Below the pieces are notes generated by a model that saw nothing but the letters and a program-made list of their open reading frames with translations, was not told the origin of the DNA and searched no databases. This document shows, one piece after another, positions 52,966 to 61,319 of a DNA stretch of 62,118 nucleotides (position 1 is its first letter; every line of letters begins with the position of its first letter). Position numbers and translations under genes: made by a program. The stretch comes from Anaeromyxobacter diazotrophicus (GTDB taxonomy: Bacteria > Myxococcota > Myxococcia > Myxococcales > Anaeromyxobacteraceae). The stretch lies in assembly GCF_013340205.1 (NCBI RefSeq), contig NZ_BJTG01000015.1:1-62118 (forward strand), given 5' to 3'.

Positions 52966-53685
52966 ATGAACGCATCCTCCGGTCCATGCGCTTTCACCTC
53001 GACCTTCACCTCCGCCCTCCTCGACCTCCTCTACCCCCCTCGCTGCGCCGCCTGCCGCGAGCTGCTCGCGAGCTCCGCGGACGAGCCCTTCTGCCCCACC
53101 TGCCGCGACGCCATCGACTCCGTCCCCCCGGGCTGCGCCCGCTGCGGCCTGCCGGGCCCGCACGCGCTCTGCGGCGCGTGCCTGGCCGCGCCGCCCGCCT
53201 TCGCCTCCTGCCGCGCCGGCGCCCTGTTCGGCGGCCCGCTCGCCGACGCGGTCCACGCGCTCAAGTACGGCGATCGCCCCGCGCTGGCGCGCCCGCTCGG
53301 CGCCTGGCTCGCCGCGGCCGCCCCGTGGCCCGAAGGCGCGGCGGTGGTCGCGGTGCCGCTCGGCCGCCGCCGGCGCCTCGCCCGCGGCTACGACCAGGCG
53401 CAGCTCGTCGCCCGCGCCGTGGCTCGCGCCCGCCGCGCGCCCTTCCTTCCGGCCGCGCTGCGCCGCACCCGCGAGACCGCGCCGCAGGTGGGCACCTCGC
53501 GCGCGGAGCGGCTCCGCAACGTGCGCGGCGCATTCGCCGCCGAGCGGCGCCTGGTGGCGGGGCGCGCGCTCGTGCTGGTGGACGACGTGGTCACCACCGC
53601 CGCCACCGCCGGCGCGTGCAGCGAGGCGCTCCTCGTCGCCGGCGCCCGCGAGGTGCACGTCATCGCCCTGGCGCGCGCCGACTGA
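52966..53685 (+). CDS. comF: ComF-family phosphoribosyltransferase-like protein
   Basis: The 239-aa protein has an N-terminal zinc ribbon with four Cys pairs (CAAC, CPTC, CARC, CGAC). The PRTase domain follows with LKYGDRPALARPLG, VVAVPLGRRRRLARGYDQAQLVARAVA and the PRPP-loop VLVDDVVTTAATAGACSEAL. In Gram-negatives ComF/GntX-type proteins take part in DNA uptake or reuse of DNA as nutrient. The length is normal. The N-terminal 18 residues are low-complexity and run out of the preceding repeat; a start a few codons later cannot be excluded. Confidence 0.93.
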   Translation: MNASSGPCAFTSTFTSALLDLLYPPRCAACRELLASSADEPFCPTCRDAIDSVPPGCARCGLPGPHALCGACLAAPPAFASCRAGALFGGPLADAVHALKYGDRPALARPLGAWLAAAAPWPEGAAVVAVPLGRRRRLARGYDQAQLVARAVARARRAPFLPAALRRTRETAPQVGTSRAERLRNVRGAFAAERRLVAGRALVLVDDVVTTAATAGACSEALLVAGAREVHVIALARAD

Positions 53686-53796: not shown

Positions 53797-56700
53797 ATGC
53801 TGCAAGCCGCCCGCCGCCCCGCTCACCTCGCCGCCTGCGCGCTCGCGCTCGCCCTCTGCACCCGCGCCGCCGCCGAGGCGCCCGCGCCCGCCGAGCCGCT
53901 GGAGGCGCGCGCGGGGGAGCTCCTCGCCGAGCTGGAGCGCGACCACGCCCAGCCGCGCGCGCTCCCGGTGCTGATCGAGCTCTCCGGCCTGGAGGGCGAG
54001 CTCTCCGACCTCGGCAAGCTGGCCGCCGCGTACGACGCGCTCGCGACCGACCGCGCCGCGCACCCCGAGGTGCGCGCCTACGCCCGCTTCCGGCTCGCGC
54101 ACCTGGAGCGCGCCCGCGGCAACCTGCGCCGCAGCGAGGCGGACCTGGCGCAGCTCGCGTTCCTGCGCGGCTGGCAGGTGGCTGGCCCGTTCGACAACGA
54201 GGGGAAGCGCGGCTTCGACGAGGCCTTCCCGCCGGAGGCGGAGCAGGCGCTCGGGGCGCGCTACCCCGGCAAGGGGCGCGAGGTGGGGTGGCGACCGCTG
54301 CCGCAGGAGGCGCTCGCGGCCGGCTTCGCGCACCTCGGCGCGGCGGTGCGGCCGGCGCGCGAGGTGGTGGTCTACGCGCTCACGGCCGTGGAGTCGCCGC
54401 GCGACGCGCGCGCGGTCCTGTACCTGGGCGCGAGCGGCGCGGTGAAGGTGTTCGTGAACGGCGCGCTCGTCCACGCCGACCCGAGCTACCACCGGGCGCG
54501 GCTCGACACCTCGGCGGTGGAGGTGGGGCTGCGCCGCGGGCCGAACCGCATCCTGGTGAAGCTGTGCCAGGCCGAGGGGATGATGGGCTTCTTCGTGCGG
54601 CTCGCCGACGAGCGCGGCGAGCCGCTCGCCCTCCGGCCCGCCCGCCTCCCGCCGCTCCCGGCCCTGGCGCGTCCCGCCGGGAAGGCCTCGCCGCGGCCGG
54701 GCGTCCTCGACCTGCTGGAGCGGCGCGCCCGCGCGGCGAGCGGCGCGGCGGCCGGCCCGGCCCGGCTCGACCTGGCGCTGGCGCTGGCGGAGCGGCGCCC
54801 GGGCGAGGACCGCGAGCGGCGCGCCGCGGCGGAGGCGAGGCGCGCGGCGAAGCTCATGCCCGGCTCGGTCCGCGCCCGCCTCCTGGCGGCGCGGCTCGAC
54901 GACGACGGCAACCGCCGGCGCGAGCAGCTCGAGGCGGCGGTGGCGGCCCACCCCGACGACCCGCTGGCGCTCGCCGCGCTCGGCCGGCACGAGCTCTCGC
55001 ACAACCGGCTGGCGCGGGCGCAGCGGCTGCTCGAGCGCGCCGTCCGGGCCGCCCCGCGCTTCGCGGCGGCGCGCCTCGCCCTGGCGGACCTCCACGAGCA
55101 GGCGGGGCTCGCCGCCCGGGCGCAGCGCGAGCGGGCGGCGCTGGCGCGGGAGCTGCCCTTCCACCCCGGCGCGGTGGCGGCCGCGGTGCGCGGGCTCCGC
55201 GCCCAGGACCGCCTGGACGAGGCGGCGCCGCTCCTGCGCAAGGCGCTCGCGCTCCGCTTCGACGACGCCGCCGCGCGGGCGAGCCTCACCCAGGTGCTCC
55301 TGCAGCGCGCCGACCTCGACGGCGCGGTGCGCCTGCTCGAGGAGGCGCTCCGGCTCGACCCGGCCGACCTGGAGGCGCGCCTGCGCCTCGCCGACCTGCT
55401 CGCCGGCAACGGCCGGTCCGACGAGGCGGAGGCGACCTACGCCGCCGCGCTCCGCATCGCCCCGGAGGAGCCGGAGATCCTGGAGCGGCGCGGCCAGGCA
55501 CGGCTCCGCGCCGGGCACGCCCAGGAGGCGCTGGCCGACTTCCAGGGCGCCCTCGAGCTCAAGCCCCAGAACCCCCAGCTCAAGGAGCTGGTGCGCGCCA
55601 TCGAGCCCAAGCGCGAGCCGTTCGAGCAGCCCTACCTGCGCGACGCGCGCCTCCTCGCCGCCGGCGCCCCGGCGGCCGCCGCCGACGAGGACGCGCTGGT
55701 GCTCTCGGACCTCCAGGTGCGGAAGGTCTTCGCCTCCGGCCTCTCCTCCGCCGTCCACCAGCTGGTGGTGAAGGTGCTCACCCCCCGCGGCGTCGAGGCG
55801 TGGCGGAGCTGGGCGACCGGCTACACCCCAGACCGCCAGGAGGTGAAGGTGGCGCGGGCGCGGGTGCTGAAGCCGGACGGCGCCGAGGTGGACACGTACC
55901 AGGAGAGCGACCGGAGCGCGAGCGAGCCCTGGTACCGGCTCTACTACGACACCCGCACGCGCCAGCTCGGCTTCCCGGCGCTGGCGCCGGGCGACGTGCT
56001 CGAGATCGCGGTGCGCACCGACGACGTGGCGAGCGAGAACCTCCTCTCCGACTACTTCGGCGAGGTGGTCTTCTTCGGCGACGACACCCGGCGGGCGCAG
56101 ACCGAGTACGTGCTGCTGGCGCCGGAGGGGCGGAAGATCTTCGCCTCCGACCCGGCGCTGCCCGGCCTCCAGAAGTCCGAGCGCGCGCTCGAGGGCGGGG
56201 TGGTGGAGCGGCGCTGGGCGGCGAAGGACGTGCCGCGGCTCCGGCCCGAGCCGGGGATGCCGGGCTGGAGCGAGGTGGCGCCCTACCTGCACGTCTCCAC
56301 CTACGCGAGCTGGGACGACGTGGCGCGCTTCTACTGGGGGCTCGTGCGCGAGCAGCTCGTCCCGACGGCGGAGGTGCGCGAGACGGCGCTCCGGCTCGCC
56401 GCCGAGACGCGCGCCGCGCGGCGCAAGCAGGGGCTGCCGCCGGCGGGCGACGAGCTGGCGGTGATCCAGGCGGTGCACCGCTTCGTGGTGACGAACACCC
56501 GCTACGTCGCGCTCGAGTTCGGCATCCACGGCTTCAAGCCGTACCGGGTCGAGCAGATCCTCGACCGCCGCTTCGGCGACTGCAAGGACAAGGCGAGCCT
56601 CACCCACGCGCTGCTCGAGTCGCTCGGGATCGACTCGCGCCTGGTCCTGCTGCGGATGCGGCGGCTCGGCCGGATGCCGGAGCGGCCCGCCTCGCTGGCG

Positions 56701-57525
56701 GTGTTCAACCACGCCATCCTCTACGTCCCCCGGCACGACCTCTGGCTCGACGGGACGGCCTCGTACTCCGGCTCGCGCGATCTCCCCGGCGAGGACCGCG
56801 GGGCGACGGTGCTGGTGGTGAACCCGGGCGCCCCGGCGCGCTTCACCACCCTCCCCGAGGGCCAGCCCGGCGACAACCGCAGCGAGAGCCGGTACGACGT
56901 CGCGCTCGCCGCCGACGGCAGCGCCGCCGTGACCGGCGAGGCGCGGGTGGCCGGGGTGCAGGCGCCGGGCTACCGCCGCGCCTACGCCGCCGAGGGCGAC
57001 CGCCGCGCCCACCTCGAGCAGGCGATGAGCCGCACCTTCCCCGGGCTGGCGGTGAAGGAGGTCTCCGTCTCCGATCTCGGCCGGCTGGAGGACGACGTCC
57101 AGCTCCGCTTCGCGCTCTCCTTGCCGCGGCTCGCCGACCGGCAGGGGGACGGGTTGCGGCTGCCGCCGTTCGGCGCCGGGCAGCGCTTCACCGAGAGCCT
57201 GGCGCCGCTCTCGGCGCGCCGGCAGGACCTCGTCCTCGGCGCGCCCTGGGAGGCGCGCCTCGCCTACCGCTACGCGCTCCCCGCCGGCTGGCGCGCGGTC
57301 GAGCTGCCGCCGCCCGCGGCGCTCGACGGCGACTTCGCCGCCTTCGAGGTGAGCTACCGCGAGGAGGGGGGCGCGCTCCTCGCCGAGACCCGGGTGCGGC
57401 TCAAGGCGAGCCGCGTCCCCGCCGCCTCCTACGGCGCCTTCCGCGACTTCCTCTCGCAGGTGGACCGCGCGCTGGCGCGGCCGGTCCGGCTCGCGCCGGC
57501 GGCCCCCGCCGCCGCCTCCCGGTGA
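53797..57525 (+). CDS. DUF3857/transglutaminase-like TPR protein with intact triad
   Basis: The 1242-aa exported protein has a signal peptide, then TPR-like helices and an inserted beta domain (residues about 125-290, WQVAGPFDNEGKRGFDEAF, YLGASGAVKVFVNGALVHAD). More TPRs span about 330-600. A DUF3857 domain (about 635-815, HQLVVKVLTPRGVEAWRSWATGY) precedes the transglutaminase-like domain with Cys929 in RFGDCKDKASLTHALLESLG, His972 in FNHAIL and Asp985 in WLDGTA. The catalytic triad is thus complete. Such proteins act in the envelope; the substrate is unknown. The next gene is a paralogue that begins 8 bp after its stop. Confidence 0.9.
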   Translation: MLQAARRPAHLAACALALALCTRAAAEAPAPAEPLEARAGELLAELERDHAQPRALPVLIELSGLEGELSDLGKLAAAYDALATDRAAHPEVRAYARFRLAHLERARGNLRRSEADLAQLAFLRGWQVAGPFDNEGKRGFDEAFPPEAEQALGARYPGKGREVGWRPLPQEALAAGFAHLGAAVRPAREVVVYALTAVESPRDARAVLYLGASGAVKVFVNGALVHADPSYHRARLDTSAVEVGLRRGPNRILVKLCQAEGMMGFFVRLADERGEPLALRPARLPPLPALARPAGKASPRPGVLDLLERRARAASGAAAGPARLDLALALAERRPGEDRERRAAAEARRAAKLMPGSVRARLLAARLDDDGNRRREQLEAAVAAHPDDPLALAALGRHELSHNRLARAQRLLERAVRAAPRFAAARLALADLHEQAGLAARAQRERAALARELPFHPGAVAAAVRGLRAQDRLDEAAPLLRKALALRFDDAAARASLTQVLLQRADLDGAVRLLEEALRLDPADLEARLRLADLLAGNGRSDEAEATYAAALRIAPEEPEILERRGQARLRAGHAQEALADFQGALELKPQNPQLKELVRAIEPKREPFEQPYLRDARLLAAGAPAAAADEDALVLSDLQVRKVFASGLSSAVHQLVVKVLTPRGVEAWRSWATGYTPDRQEVKVARARVLKPDGAEVDTYQESDRSASEPWYRLYYDTRTRQLGFPALAPGDVLEIAVRTDDVASENLLSDYFGEVVFFGDDTRRAQTEYVLLAPEGRKIFASDPALPGLQKSERALEGGVVERRWAAKDVPRLRPEPGMPGWSEVAPYLHVSTYASWDDVARFYWGLVREQLVPTAEVRETALRLAAETRAARRKQGLPPAGDELAVIQAVHRFVVTNTRYVALEFGIHGFKPYRVEQILDRRFGDCKDKASLTHALLESLGIDSRLVLLRMRRLGRMPERPASLAVFNHAILYVPRHDLWLDGTASYSGSRDLPGEDRGATVLVVNPGAPARFTTLPEGQPGDNRSESRYDVALAADGSAAVTGEARVAGVQAPGYRRAYAAEGDRRAHLEQAMSRTFPGLAVKEVSVSDLGRLEDDVQLRFALSLPRLADRQGDGLRLPPFGAGQRFTESLAPLSARRQDLVLGAPWEARLAYRYALPAGWRAVELPPPAALDGDFAAFEVSYREEGGALLAETRVRLKASRVPAASYGAFRDFLSQVDRALARPVRLAPAAPAAASR

Positions 57526-57533
57526 CCCCGCCC

Positions 57534-60500
57534 ATGACGAGCCTCCTCGTTCACCCCCAGCGCGGCGCCGGCCGATGCGCGGGCCGCGCCCTCGCGCTCC
57601 TCCTCGCGCTCGCCGCCTGCGCCACCGCCCGCGGGCCCCTCGACCGGCCCGAGGGCGACGCCGCCGCGCGCGGCGCCTCGGCCCGCGCGCTCGCCCAGGC
57701 CGGGCTCGACGCGCTGCTCCTGCGGAACGACGCCGCCACCGCCGCCCGCCGGATCGAGGCGGCCGAGGCGCGCGACGGGGCGGATCCCTGGGCCCGCCTC
57801 GGCGGCGCGCTCCTCGCCCGCCGCCAGCTCGACGACGCCGGGGAGGCGACGGAGCTCGTCGCCCTGGTGGAGGGCGCCCCGCGCCACCCGCTCGCGACGG
57901 TGGCGGCGCGGCGGCTCGCCGACCTCGCCGGCCGCGCCCCGGCGCTGGCGCGGAAGATCGAGGAGGGGCTCGCCCGGGCGCAGCCGCGGCTCGAGGGCGG
58001 CACCGCCTTCCGGGCGCGCGCCGCGCGGGCGGCGGCGCTCGCCGCGCTCGGCGAGCGGGGCCGGGCGGCGCAGCTGCGGGCCGAGGCGGGCGCGGTCACG
58101 GCGGTGGCGCTGGCCGGCCCGTTCGGCGGGCTCCACGGCCTCGAGCTCGACACCCCCTTCCCGCCGGAGGCGGGGCCGCTGCCCGCGAGCGCCCCGCAGG
58201 CCGCCGGCCTCCCGCCGGCGCCCACCCGCGCGCTCGCCTTCCCCGACGGCGTCGTCACGCTCGAGGGCGAGCCCCCCGGCGCGGACCTCTACTACGTCGC
58301 CGCGGAGGTGACGCTCGCCCGCGGCGGCGACTACCTGCTCGCGGTGGGCGGCGACCTCTCCTTGCGCGCCTTCCTCGACGGCGCCCCGGTGGCCGAGCGG
58401 CGCGCCTACGCCGGCTTCCCCCCGCTGGCGCAGCTCGTGCCGCTCCGGCTCTCGGCGGGGACGCACCGGCTCCTCGTGAAGCTCGGCCGCGGCGACGCGC
58501 CCGGGCAGCTGGCGGTGTCCTTCGCCCGCGCCGACGGCGCCCCTTCCGACGCGACCTCCGCCGCCGCGGCGCCGGGCACCGCCGCCCCCGCCGTGAAGGC
58601 CGGTCCGCTCCCGCCGCCGCTCCCGGGCGCGCCGGCGCTGGCGCTCGGCCTCGAGCGCGAGGCCGGGCCGGTGGCCGCGCCGCTCGCCGCAGCCCTCGGG
58701 GCGCTCGACCTCGATCGGGAGGCGGCCAAGGCGCTCCTCGAGGGCGCGCTGCGCGCTGCGCCCCGCTCGGCCGCGCTGCTGGCGTTCCGGGCCGAGGCGC
58801 GCCAGGACGACCCGACGCTCTCGGAGCGGGTCGCGCGGGCGCGCGCCGTGGCCGATCTGGACCAGGCGCTGGCGGCCGATCCGGGGGACGCCGAGGCGCG
58901 GCTCGCCCGCGCCGAGCTGGCGCGGCAGGGGGACCGGCTGGACGACGCGGCGGCGCTGCTCGACGCGCTCTCCGAGGCGGCGGCGGCGCGCCCGCGGGCG
59001 CTCCTGGCGCGCGCCCGGCTGGCGGAGGCGCGCGGGCTGGCGGCCCAGGCGGAGCGGTTCGCCGACGAGGCGCGCCGGGTGGGCGGCGACTGCGCCGCGC
59101 TGGAGCTGTCGCAGGCGCTGGCGGTCCGGCGCGACGCCCTGCAGCGGCAGGACGAGCTCGCCACCGCGCTGCGGGCCTGCCCGGCGGGGCTGGAGCGGCT
59201 GGTGGAGCACCGGCGCCGCCGCGGCGACCTGGCGGGCGCGCTCGCGCTGGCGGACGAGGTGGTGCGGCTCGCGCCCGCCCGCATCGACGGGCGCCTGGTG
59301 CGCGCCGGGCTCCGCGCCTCGCGCGGCGACCCGCGCGCCGCCGCCGCCGACCTCGAGGACCTGGCGCGGAGCTGGCCGCGCGCGGCGCGCCTCGAGAAGC
59401 GCCGGGCGGAGTACCTCGAGGCGGCCGGCGACGCGGCCGGGGCGCGCGCCGCGCGGGAGCGGGCGCTCCTCCTCGACGGGAGCGACCTCCAGCTCCGCCG
59501 CGCCCTCGCGCTGGAGGGGGGCCACGAGCCGCTCGACGAGCTCGACGAGGACGGCGCCGCGGCGCTCGCCGCCTACCGCGCGGCCGGCGGCCGCCGCGCC
59601 ACCTCCAGCGTGACCGTGCTCGACCTGGGCGCGGTGGAGGCGCACCCCGGCGGCGCCTACACCGAGCGCATCCACACCCTGGTCGAGGCGCGCGACGAGC
59701 GGGCGGTGGACCGGGTGGGCGAGGTGGCGGTGCCGGAGGGCGCCGAGCTGCTCGAGGCGCGCACGGTGAAGAGGGACGGCCGGGTGCTGGAGCCGGAGGA
59801 GCCGCTCGGCGACAAGCGCACCCTCTCGCTCACCGGCCTCGAGCCGGGCGACCTGGCGGAGTGGATCTGGATGCGGACGGTCCCGCCGCGCGGCGCCGCG
59901 GTGCCGGGCTTCAGCGCCGACCCGTTCTACTTCCGCGCCGACGAGCCCCTGTGGCGGTCGGTCTACACCGCCGCCGCGCCGCGCGGGCTCGGCCTGGAGG
60001 TGGACGCCCACCACCTGCCGCCGCCGCCGGTCCGCGAGGAGGGCGGGCGCGAGGTGGTGCGGGTGGTGCGCGAGGACGTGCCGGCGCTCTTCCCCGAGCC
60101 GGGCGCGCCGGCCCTGGCGGAGCACCTGCCGTTCGTGCAGGCCGGCGCTGGCGCCGGGCGCGAGGCGCTGGCGCGCGCGATGGCCGACGGGCTCCTCGAG
60201 CCCTGCCGGCCCAGCCTGGAGGTGCGGCAGCTCGCGGCCGAGCTGGCGGCGAGCGTGCCGCCGGCGGAGCGCGGCGGCGAGGCGCTGCCGCGCGCCGCTT
60301 ACCGCCGCGTGCAGGAGCTCATCCTGGGCCAGGGCGGCTCCTTCTCCGAGCCGGCCGGCGCCATCCTCTCGCGCGGGCGCGGCAGCCGGACGGTGCTCCT
60401 CCAGAGCCTGCTCGAGGCGCTGGGGGTGCGCTCGCGCCTGGCGCTGGTGCGCGACTTCGGGCGCGACCCGGCGCCCTACCGCTTCCCGCGCCCGGACCTG

Positions 60501-61319
60501 TACGGCTACGCGGTGCTGCGGCTCGAGCGCGGCGGCCAGGTCACCTGGCTCGACCCGACCACCCGCGGCACGCCCTACGGCGTCCTGCCGGCGCAGCTGC
60601 GCGGCGCCGAGGCGCTGGTGCTGCCCGGGCCGGGCGAGCAGGTGGAGGTGGCGCGCACGCCGCCGGACGACGGCTCCGAGCGGCGCCGGACCCGGCTGGC
60701 GGTGACGGTGGACGCGGAGGGCGGGGCGGTGCTGGAGGGCTCCGACGCCTACACCGGGTTCGAGGCGGCCGCGCTGCGCGCCTCGGTCGAGCGGCTCGAC
60801 GGGCAGGCGCGGCGGCAGGCGATGGAGCAGATGCTGGCGCGGAGCTTCCGCGGGGCGGCGCTCCTCGACCTGGCGGTGGATGGGGAGGGCGCGCTGGAGG
60901 GGCCGGTGACCCTGCGCTGGCGGGCCAAGGTGGAGCGCTGGGCGCGGCTGGAGGAGGGGAGGGCGGTGGCGGAGCAGCCGGTGTTCCCGGCCCGCCTCGG
61001 CGCGCGCTTCCTGCAGCGCGCCGCGCGCGAGACGCCGCTGCTGGTGGCTGGGGACGACCGCGCCTCGCTGGAGCTCTCCGTGACCCTGCCAGCCGGCTGG
61101 CAGCCCTTGCCCGGCGCGCAGGCAGCGCTCGAGACACCCTTCGGCAGCTTCCGGCGCGTGGAGCAGGTGTCGGGTGGCCGCCTCCAGCGGACCGACCAGC
61201 TCGACCTGCTCCGCGGGCGGATCGCGCCCGCGGATTACCCCGCGTTCGGGGCGTTCGCGCGGGCGGTGGACGCGGCGCAGGGTGAGCCCCTGGTGTTCCG
61301 CCGCGGCACCCCGGGGTGA
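57534..61319 (+). CDS. DUF3857/transglutaminase-like TPR lipoprotein, catalytic residues lost
   Basis: This 1261-aa paralogue of the preceding protein has a lipobox ending at Cys29, the same inserted beta domain (about 180-335, VALAGPFGGLHGLELDTPFP, GDYLLAVGGDLSLRAFLDGAPV), TPR helices to about 680 and DUF3857 (VEAHPGGAYTERIHTLVEARDERAV). The transglutaminase-like domain reads SRGRGSRTVLLQSLLEALGVRSRL, where Arg949 replaces the catalytic Cys. The His position is Tyr992 (YGYAVL), and only Asp1007 in WLDPT remains. Hence it cannot be an acyl-transfer enzyme or cysteine peptidase. The two are likely cotranscribed and may work together as an active/inactive pair. Confidence 0.9.
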   Translation: MTSLLVHPQRGAGRCAGRALALLLALAACATARGPLDRPEGDAAARGASARALAQAGLDALLLRNDAATAARRIEAAEARDGADPWARLGGALLARRQLDDAGEATELVALVEGAPRHPLATVAARRLADLAGRAPALARKIEEGLARAQPRLEGGTAFRARAARAAALAALGERGRAAQLRAEAGAVTAVALAGPFGGLHGLELDTPFPPEAGPLPASAPQAAGLPPAPTRALAFPDGVVTLEGEPPGADLYYVAAEVTLARGGDYLLAVGGDLSLRAFLDGAPVAERRAYAGFPPLAQLVPLRLSAGTHRLLVKLGRGDAPGQLAVSFARADGAPSDATSAAAAPGTAAPAVKAGPLPPPLPGAPALALGLEREAGPVAAPLAAALGALDLDREAAKALLEGALRAAPRSAALLAFRAEARQDDPTLSERVARARAVADLDQALAADPGDAEARLARAELARQGDRLDDAAALLDALSEAAAARPRALLARARLAEARGLAAQAERFADEARRVGGDCAALELSQALAVRRDALQRQDELATALRACPAGLERLVEHRRRRGDLAGALALADEVVRLAPARIDGRLVRAGLRASRGDPRAAAADLEDLARSWPRAARLEKRRAEYLEAAGDAAGARAARERALLLDGSDLQLRRALALEGGHEPLDELDEDGAAALAAYRAAGGRRATSSVTVLDLGAVEAHPGGAYTERIHTLVEARDERAVDRVGEVAVPEGAELLEARTVKRDGRVLEPEEPLGDKRTLSLTGLEPGDLAEWIWMRTVPPRGAAVPGFSADPFYFRADEPLWRSVYTAAAPRGLGLEVDAHHLPPPPVREEGGREVVRVVREDVPALFPEPGAPALAEHLPFVQAGAGAGREALARAMADGLLEPCRPSLEVRQLAAELAASVPPAERGGEALPRAAYRRVQELILGQGGSFSEPAGAILSRGRGSRTVLLQSLLEALGVRSRLALVRDFGRDPAPYRFPRPDLYGYAVLRLERGGQVTWLDPTTRGTPYGVLPAQLRGAEALVLPGPGEQVEVARTPPDDGSERRRTRLAVTVDAEGGAVLEGSDAYTGFEAAALRASVERLDGQARRQAMEQMLARSFRGAALLDLAVDGEGALEGPVTLRWRAKVERWARLEEGRAVAEQPVFPARLGARFLQRAARETPLLVAGDDRASLELSVTLPAGWQPLPGAQAALETPFGSFRRVEQVSGGRLQRTDQLDLLRGRIAPADYPAFGAFARAVDAAQGEPLVFRRGTPG

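What the first reader, a model, noticed from the sequence alone, without database searches (positions are those of the whole stretch)
53797..61319. Tandem giant paralogues: one active, one inactive transglutaminase-like domain
The two genes are 8 bp apart and share the domain order TPR, beta insert, TPR, DUF3857, transglutaminase-like. The first has Cys929/His972/Asp985; the second has Arg949/Tyr992/Asp1007. The first looks secreted into the periplasm, the second has a lipobox. This suggests an envelope complex in which an active and a lipid-anchored inactive copy pair up, as known for other enzyme/pseudoenzyme pairs.
Basis: partly seen in the sequence, partly recalled or inferred. Interest (0 to 1): 0.6.

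Follow-up and report, generated by a model that had tools for sequence, protein, structure and literature searches.

The report
Tandem active and inactive envelope transglutaminase-like pair
Two neighbouring giant genes encode an intact-looking envelope enzyme and its lipid-anchored, catalytically dead twin, and this living/dead pair has been kept across a whole bacterial phylum, which suggests the dead copy has a partner role that has not been studied.

Summary
Gene 1 (53797-57525) and gene 2 (57534-61319) are full-length paralogues with one domain order. Gene 1 has Cys929/His972/Asp985. Gene 2 has no catalytic Cys; alignments read this as a three-residue deletion of the Cys loop, not a Cys-to-Arg949 swap. 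Among relatives, 118 of 118 distinct gene-1 orthologues keep Cys-His-Asp, and 0 of 100 gene-2 orthologues covering the site has the Cys. Gene 2 keeps a lipobox (74 of 88 readable N-termini, strict pattern); gene 1 does not (6 of 107). The pair is tandem in Anaeromyxobacteraceae, Sandaracinus, Nannocystis and others, and kept but unlinked in Myxococcaceae, Sorangium and Polyangium. Of 99 good genomes, 97 have both and 2 have neither. dN/dS of gene 2 equals gene 1 in the closest pair. A shorter DUF3857 family shows the same active/inactive tandem in 14 of 14 two-copy Myxococcota loci and in Parabacteroides and Persicobacter; the closest solved structure (3kd4) is such a dead partner. Complex formation, chemistry and substrate remain untested. 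Verdict: real, ancient enzyme/pseudoenzyme pair, not described in the papers searched; mechanism inferred.

The parts
53797..57525 (+). Gene 1: active-type TPR/DUF3857/transglutaminase-like protein, 1242 aa, predicted signal peptide without lipobox
54151..54657 (+). Gene 1 beta insert (residues 119-287), jelly-roll-like; weak resemblance to rhamnosidase D2 / beta-galactosidase beta domains
54703..55602 (+). Gene 1 TPR solenoid (about residues 303-602)
55735..56238 (+). Gene 1 DUF3857 (residues 647-814)
56344..56796 (+). Gene 1 transglutaminase-like core (about residues 850-1000) with Cys929 (56581-56583), His972 (56710-56712), Asp985 (56749-56751)
57534..61319 (+). Gene 2: Cys-less paralogue, 1261 aa, lipoprotein signal (possible alternative GTG start at 57522)
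57618..57620 (+). Gene 2 lipobox cysteine (Cys29, LALAAC)
   Evidence: conserved in orthologues
58086..58556 (+). Gene 2 beta insert (about residues 185-341), homologous to that of gene 1
59601..60152 (+). Gene 2 DUF3857-like domain (about residues 690-873)
60156..60665 (+). Gene 2 inactive transglutaminase-like domain (about residues 875-1044); Tyr992 60507-60509, Asp1007 60552-60554
60375..60389 (+). Gene 2 GRGSR stretch (residues 948-952) in place of GDCKDK: Gly950 invariant, Arg952 kept in 95 of 100
60666..61304 (+). Gene 2 DUF3858-like C-terminal domain
52966..53685 (+). ComF-like gene directly upstream of gene 1 (context; a homologue lies upstream of gene 1 in up to 36 loci)
   Evidence: the name is recalled from the sequence, not from a family search

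Best explanation
Gene 1 and gene 2 are the two halves of an ancient, conserved enzyme/pseudoenzyme pair of the cell envelope. SHOWN: gene 1 keeps an intact Cys-His-Asp centre in a transglutaminase-like fold; gene 2 keeps the whole fold and domain order but has lost the Cys loop; gene 2 has a lipoprotein signal and gene 1 a signal without lipobox; both are under comparable purifying selection and occur together across Myxococcota. INFERRED: gene 1 is a periplasmic cysteine acyl-enzyme (protease, amidase or acyltransferase; which one is open). Gene 2, anchored in a membrane, most likely the outer one, holds or regulates gene 1 by a heteromeric contact, plausibly through the DUF3857 domain and the TPR superhelix, and may present substrate; the beta inserts may bind envelope glycan. 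Chance that gene 2 acts as direct partner of gene 1: about 0.65; that the contact is at the outer membrane: about 0.5.
For: Triad kept in 118/118 distinct gene-1 orthologues, Cys absent in 100/100 gene-2 orthologues covering the site (rows). Gene 2 and gene 1 each form one side of a branch (SH-aLRT 99 each; 100-row sample, catalytic columns blanked). Gene 1 found strongly in 109 and gene 2 in 110 of 117 relatives, both in 106; no genome over 81% complete has only one. Gene 2 downstream on the same strand in 70 of 70 distinct linked loci. When unlinked, both are still there: Sorangium 75 kb apart, Polyangium on another contig. Lipobox 74/88 in gene 2 versus 6/107 in gene 1 with the strict pattern; 82/88 versus 15/107 with a looser one. 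dN/dS 0.126 (gene 2) versus 0.124 (gene 1) in the closest pair, L032/L050. Constraint in gene 2 has left the TG core (1 column under 0.5 bit versus 31 in gene 1) but not DUF3857 (8 versus 8) in 65 paired loci. The same active/inactive tandem occurs in a second, short subfamily: 14 of 14 two-copy Myxococcota loci, and in Parabacteroides and Persicobacter.
Against: No interaction, activity or localisation was measured, and no complex was modelled. The genes are unlinked in several families, which weakens the operon argument. In the genus of L035/L040/L044 gene 2 shows an ordinary signal peptide without lipobox, so anchoring is not universal. Two genomes over 90% complete lack both genes (G001, of the window's own genus, and G002), so the pair is not indispensable or those assemblies have a gap; where the genes are linked, one deletion or gap removes both, so joint absence is weak evidence. 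No conserved neighbour points to a substrate.
Confidence: 0.65

Rival explanations
1. Independent roles: gene 2 became a separate lipoprotein scaffold or glycan/peptide-binding protein after an old duplication and does not touch gene 1; linkage is a relic of the tandem duplication.
For: Genes unlinked in Myxococcaceae, Sorangium, Polyangium without loss of either; known inactive transglutaminase folds such as protein 4.2 are linkers to other proteins (PMC3031627, passages; PMC10318531, passages).
Against: Linked with gene 2 always downstream in 70 of 70 distinct linked loci across classes; presence and absence go together; the same arrangement arose or persists in the short subfamily and in Bacteroidota.
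Confidence: 0.25
2. Gene 2 is still an enzyme that uses another residue (for example Ser951, Arg952 or the remaining Asp) for a different chemistry.
For: Gly950 is invariant and Arg952 is kept in 95 of 100; Asp kept in 64 of 100.
Against: The His position holds His in only 15 of 100, and the residue before Arg952 is Ser 43, Asn 40, Asp 8, so no nucleophile is conserved; TG-core constraint has collapsed.
Confidence: 0.07
3. Gene 2 is a decaying duplicate.
For: Lost catalytic loop, faster TG-core evolution.
Against: dN/dS like gene 1 in close pairs; strong match in 110 of 117 relatives, with only one of the listed strong matches holding a stop inside; phylum-wide age.
Confidence: 0.01

Closest known systems
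3kd4 / BDI_1141, DUF3857-DUF3858 'putative protease' of Parabacteroides distasonis
   Same: Best structural match of both proteins: gene 1 Z 30.8 over 486 residues, gene 2 Z 19.3 over 465; same DUF3857-TG-DUF3858 order; itself lacks the Cys (GTPLEI) and its gene lies 13 bp after a Cys-His-Asp paralogue.
   Different: Short, no TPR or beta insert, no three-residue deletion; no paper on its function turned up.
Erythrocyte protein 4.2 (EPB42), pseudo-transglutaminase
   Same: Inactive transglutaminase fold acting as linker of membrane proteins (PMC3031627, passages); model of gene 2 aligns at Z 9.0.
   Different: Eukaryotic, cytoplasmic, no DUF3857, TPR or lipobox (recalled); relation only at superfamily level.
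LapG-LapD
   Same: Periplasmic transglutaminase-like Cys protease held at a membrane by a partner (PMC13090378, passages).
   Different: The LapG family (PF06035) is not hit by gene 1; LapD is an inner-membrane c-di-GMP receptor, not a paralogue of the protease.
Rad4/XPC
   Same: Inactive transglutaminase-type domain used for binding (PMC10318531, passages); Z 7.7 with gene 2.
   Different: DNA repair, different domain context.

Membership tests
DUF3857 (PF12969) / Transglut_core (PF01841) proteins | Gene 1 scores over the curated cut-offs | tested here: met
   DUF3857 89.4 bits (cut-off 24.6), Transglut_core 28.3 (23)
DUF3857 / Transglut_core proteins | Gene 2 of the window scores over the cut-offs | tested here: not met
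   DUF3857 17.3 bits for the C-terminal half, no Transglut_core hit; 48 of 52 homologues match DUF3857 and 2 of 52 Transglut_core at E 0.01
DUF3857 / Transglut_core proteins | Fold of gene 2 | tested here: met
   3kd4 Z 19.3; human TG2/TG3/FXIII Z about 10 over model residues 206-375; hhalign to gene 1 E 2.3e-67
Active transglutaminase-like enzymes | Cys-His-Asp triad in gene 1 | tested here: met
   118 of 118 distinct orthologues
Active transglutaminase-like enzymes | Cys-His-Asp triad in gene 2 | tested here: not met
   0 of 100 distinct orthologues with the Cys
Active transglutaminase-like enzymes | Catalytic activity | not testable with these tools
   needs protein
Bacterial lipoproteins | Signal peptide with lipobox in gene 2 | tested here: met
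   LALAAC at residue 29; 74 of 88 orthologues by pattern
Bacterial lipoproteins | Lipobox in gene 1 | tested here: not met
   window gene 1 none; 6 of 107 orthologues by strict pattern
LapG (PF06035) | Family profile hit | tested here: not met
   not among Pfam hits at E 1
Enzyme/pseudoenzyme complex | Physical interaction | not testable with these tools
   single chains only could be modelled

The most novel reading that the evidence does not exclude
DUF3857 transglutaminase-like enzymes of Gram-negative bacteria work in general as obligate enzyme/pseudoenzyme heteromers: a tandem active plus Cys-less copy is kept across Myxococcota (giant TPR form and short form) and in Bacteroidota, possibly from one ancestral dead subunit (one clade of all dead copies is not rejected, p-AU 0.395), and the closest crystal structure, annotated as a protease, is such a dead subunit.
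Probability: 0.4. Interest if true: 0.75.

Novelty: new variant of a known kind. Interest (0 to 1): 0.6.

Why it matters
Pseudoenzymes paired with their active paralogues are well studied in eukaryotes, but few are known in bacterial envelopes (recalled). Here is a pair kept across a phylum, with built-in localisation logic (soluble enzyme, lipid-anchored dead twin), in bacteria that include tractable genera such as Myxococcus. It gives a first functional handle on DUF3857/DUF3858, domains of unknown function with a solved structure, and says that this structure should be read as a pseudoenzyme rather than a protease.

Tried and rejected
Cys-to-Arg949 substitution: set aside, since both MAFFT and hhalign prefer a three-residue deletion. 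Decaying copy: rejected by dN/dS. Relic nucleophile in gene 2: no conserved residue. Conserved operon partner as clue to substrate: only a ComF-like gene and a phosphoglycerate-mutase-like gene upstream in part of the relatives, nothing that points to an envelope pathway (names recalled from sequence, clusters not run through a family library). Solved structures: gene 1's C-terminal part as a single sequence gave only chance-level hits, as a profile 3kd4 alone. Beta insert: no Pfam family for the window copy; 4 of 36 homologues weakly match RhaB_D2, 3 RodZ_C, 1 BetaGal_ABD2; best PDB E 0.031; left as jelly-roll-like. Single versus repeated origin of the dead copies: undecided (the test for the short plus Bacteroidota dead copies alone did not finish). 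Plasmid collection for gene 2: no match. First genome-contig scan with gene 2 found nothing. Literature: DUF3857 is named in 1 paper of the library (a neighbour of lolA in Xanthomonas, one passage read), and none holds it together with 'transglutaminase'. Searches for Myxococcus xanthus + transglutaminase, transglutaminase + pseudoenzyme + bacteria, BDI_1141/3KD4 and transglutaminase-like + catalytically inactive + bacterial + periplasmic listed nothing that describes this pair in the titles and abstract starts shown. Only CC-licensed PMC papers are searchable.

Row handling: 286 aligned rows were reduced to 249 distinct ones (37 duplicates between collections or close species); of 103 distinct gene-2 rows 3 fragments do not cover the site. 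Duplicates were found by a 60-residue match, so very close species were merged. Structure alignments and trees used subsets: A4 71 rows (97 full-length gene-1 rows were at hand), A5 52 rows, trees 100 and 92 rows.
Full report
WHAT IS THERE. Gene 1 (53797-57525, 1242 aa) and gene 2 (57534-61319, 1261 aa) lie on the + strand with 8 bp between them; an in-frame GTG at 57522 could even overlap the stop of gene 1. Gene 1 carries TPR, DUF3857 and Transglut_core by Pfam; gene 2 is too diverged for the last two but is homologous along its whole length: E 2.3e-67 for the C-terminal half, 1.4e-44 for the N-terminal half, 2.4e-20 for the beta insert. A DUF3857 search of the own genome finds one match, gene 1.

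THE DEAD SITE. In 118 distinct gene-1 orthologues the Cys-His-Asp triad is complete in all; in 100 distinct gene-2 orthologues that cover the site the Cys is missing in all (rows). MAFFT places a three-residue gap at Asp-Cys-Lys in all 100; hhalign places the gap one residue further on. Before the gap stands an invariant Gly (Gly950), after it mostly Ser or Asn and then Arg (95 of 100). The His position holds His in 15 and Tyr in 26, the Asp position Asp in 64. Seven more loci from the last genome search (some repeating species already counted), among them Sorangium and Polyangium, also lack the Cys. Two related groups in the same genomes, a third paralogue (15 of 15) and other DUF3857 proteins (12 of 13; the thirteenth row is a fragment without the site), keep the triad, so the loss is derived in gene 2. 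In a 100-row tree with the catalytic columns blanked, gene 2 is one side of a branch, SH-aLRT 99.

DISTRIBUTION. In 117 related genomes gene 1 is strong (E under 1e-200) in 109 and gene 2 (E under 1e-140) in 110, both in 106. The eleven others: G001, G002 and G023 have neither; G014 has a gene 1 cut by a contig end; G016 and G018 have the start of gene 2 at a contig end; G008, G012, G017, G040 and G059 (61-81% complete) show one gene only. Of 99 genomes at least 90% complete with low contamination, 97 have both (in G016 gene 2 is partial) and 2 have neither. Over the phylum, gene 2 appears in another family of the class and in other classes. Named carriers of gene 1 or the pair include Anaeromyxobacter oryzae and soli, Myxococcus, Corallococcus, Pyxidicoccus, Archangium, Sandaracinus, Nannocystis, Labilithrix, Sorangium and Polyangium. 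In 70 distinct loci the genes are linked, gene 2 downstream on the same strand in all 70. They are unlinked (tens of kb or other contigs) in the large-genome family that holds the Myxococcus-type records, in Sorangium (75 kb) and in Polyangium.

LOCATION. A strict lipobox pattern occurs in 74 of 88 readable gene-2 N-termini and 6 of 107 gene-1 N-termini; a looser one in 82 of 88 and 15 of 107. One genus (L035, L040, L044) has a plain signal in gene 2. These are pattern counts, not a trained predictor, and gene starts were estimated from alignment to the window proteins.

SELECTION. In the closest pair of genomes dN/dS is 0.124 for gene 1 and 0.126 for gene 2; over the pairs tried it ranges 0.09-0.43 and 0.11-0.54 (synonymous sites are few in this GC-rich DNA and partly saturated in the wider pairs). 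In 65 paired loci the TG core has 31 columns under 0.5 bit in gene 1 but 1 in gene 2, while DUF3857 has 8 and 8. Gene 2 thus looks like a working protein whose constraint has moved away from the old active site.

STRUCTURE. The model of gene 2's C-terminal half (pLDDT 95.7) matches 3kd4 over all three domains, Z 19.3, then human transglutaminases at Z about 10 over the TG part, among them the pseudo-transglutaminase protein 4.2 (Z 9.0). Gene 1 matches 3kd4 at Z 30.8 and TPR superhelices at Z up to 19.7.

A WIDER RULE. 3kd4 itself has GTPLEI where gene 1 has GDCKDK. In a Parabacteroides distasonis record its gene follows, 13 bp downstream, a DUF3857 protein that has Cys-His-Asp. Two Persicobacter loci also pair a Cys-bearing with a Cys-less copy (in one the Cys-bearing copy has Glu for Asp), whereas Aureibacter has a single active-type copy, and the Burkholderia/Paraburkholderia copies looked at are active-type. 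In Myxococcota, 14 of 14 loci with two adjacent short DUF3857 copies have one complete triad and one Cys-less copy, with Pro (9), Asn (3) or Ala (2) at the Cys; six further loci from the same fetch held single or non-adjacent copies, mostly without the motif. Whether all dead copies share one origin is open: p-AU 0.395.

MECHANISM. Most likely gene 1 is a secreted transglutaminase-type cysteine enzyme and gene 2 its lipid-anchored pseudoenzyme partner that places or regulates it. This rests on co-conservation, opposite targeting signals, kept fold and moved constraint; contact, activity and substrate are inferred or unknown. It works like protein 4.2 (dead fold as membrane linker; PMC3031627, passages) and LapD-LapG (membrane partner holding a periplasmic transglutaminase-like protease; PMC13090378, passages). 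It belongs to neither.

NOVELTY. The domains are known; the pairing is not described in the papers found. Hence a new variant of a known kind (enzyme/pseudoenzyme pair).

Noticed in passing
L316-L328, L333; L336, L337, L339: Short DUF3857-transglutaminase proteins are also tandem active/inactive pairs, with Pro, Asn or Ala (other changes in Bacteroidota) at the Cys.
   Followed up: partly
PDB 3kd4 (L336:7433-9016): The closest solved structure, titled a putative protease, lacks the catalytic Cys and is the downstream partner of an active-type gene.
   Followed up: yes
L066, L073, L079, L198, L200, L207, L212-L214, L219-L223: A third long paralogue with complete triad occurs in part of the families; in L198 it is next to gene 1.
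   Followed up: partly
52966-53685: A ComF-like gene lies directly upstream of gene 1 in the window and a homologue upstream in up to 36 loci; reason unknown.
   Followed up: no
model m5247418a4a03: Yeast/human OST1 (ribophorin I) is the second-best Foldseek match of the dead half (E 7e-10, but poor superposition), and M1 aminopeptidase N-terminal domains match the DUF3857 part.
   Followed up: no
L230 (BNCN01000002.1): A record titled Comamonas sp. KCTC 72670 carries a gene 1 like that of Myxococcus-type records; probably a mislabelled record.
   Followed up: no
L303 (JAKBES010000020.1): A MAG titled Acidobacteria carries the tandem pair; transfer, or a wrong label.
   Followed up: no
G001 and G002: One genome of the window's own genus and one of its family lack both genes at over 90% completeness.
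   Followed up: partly
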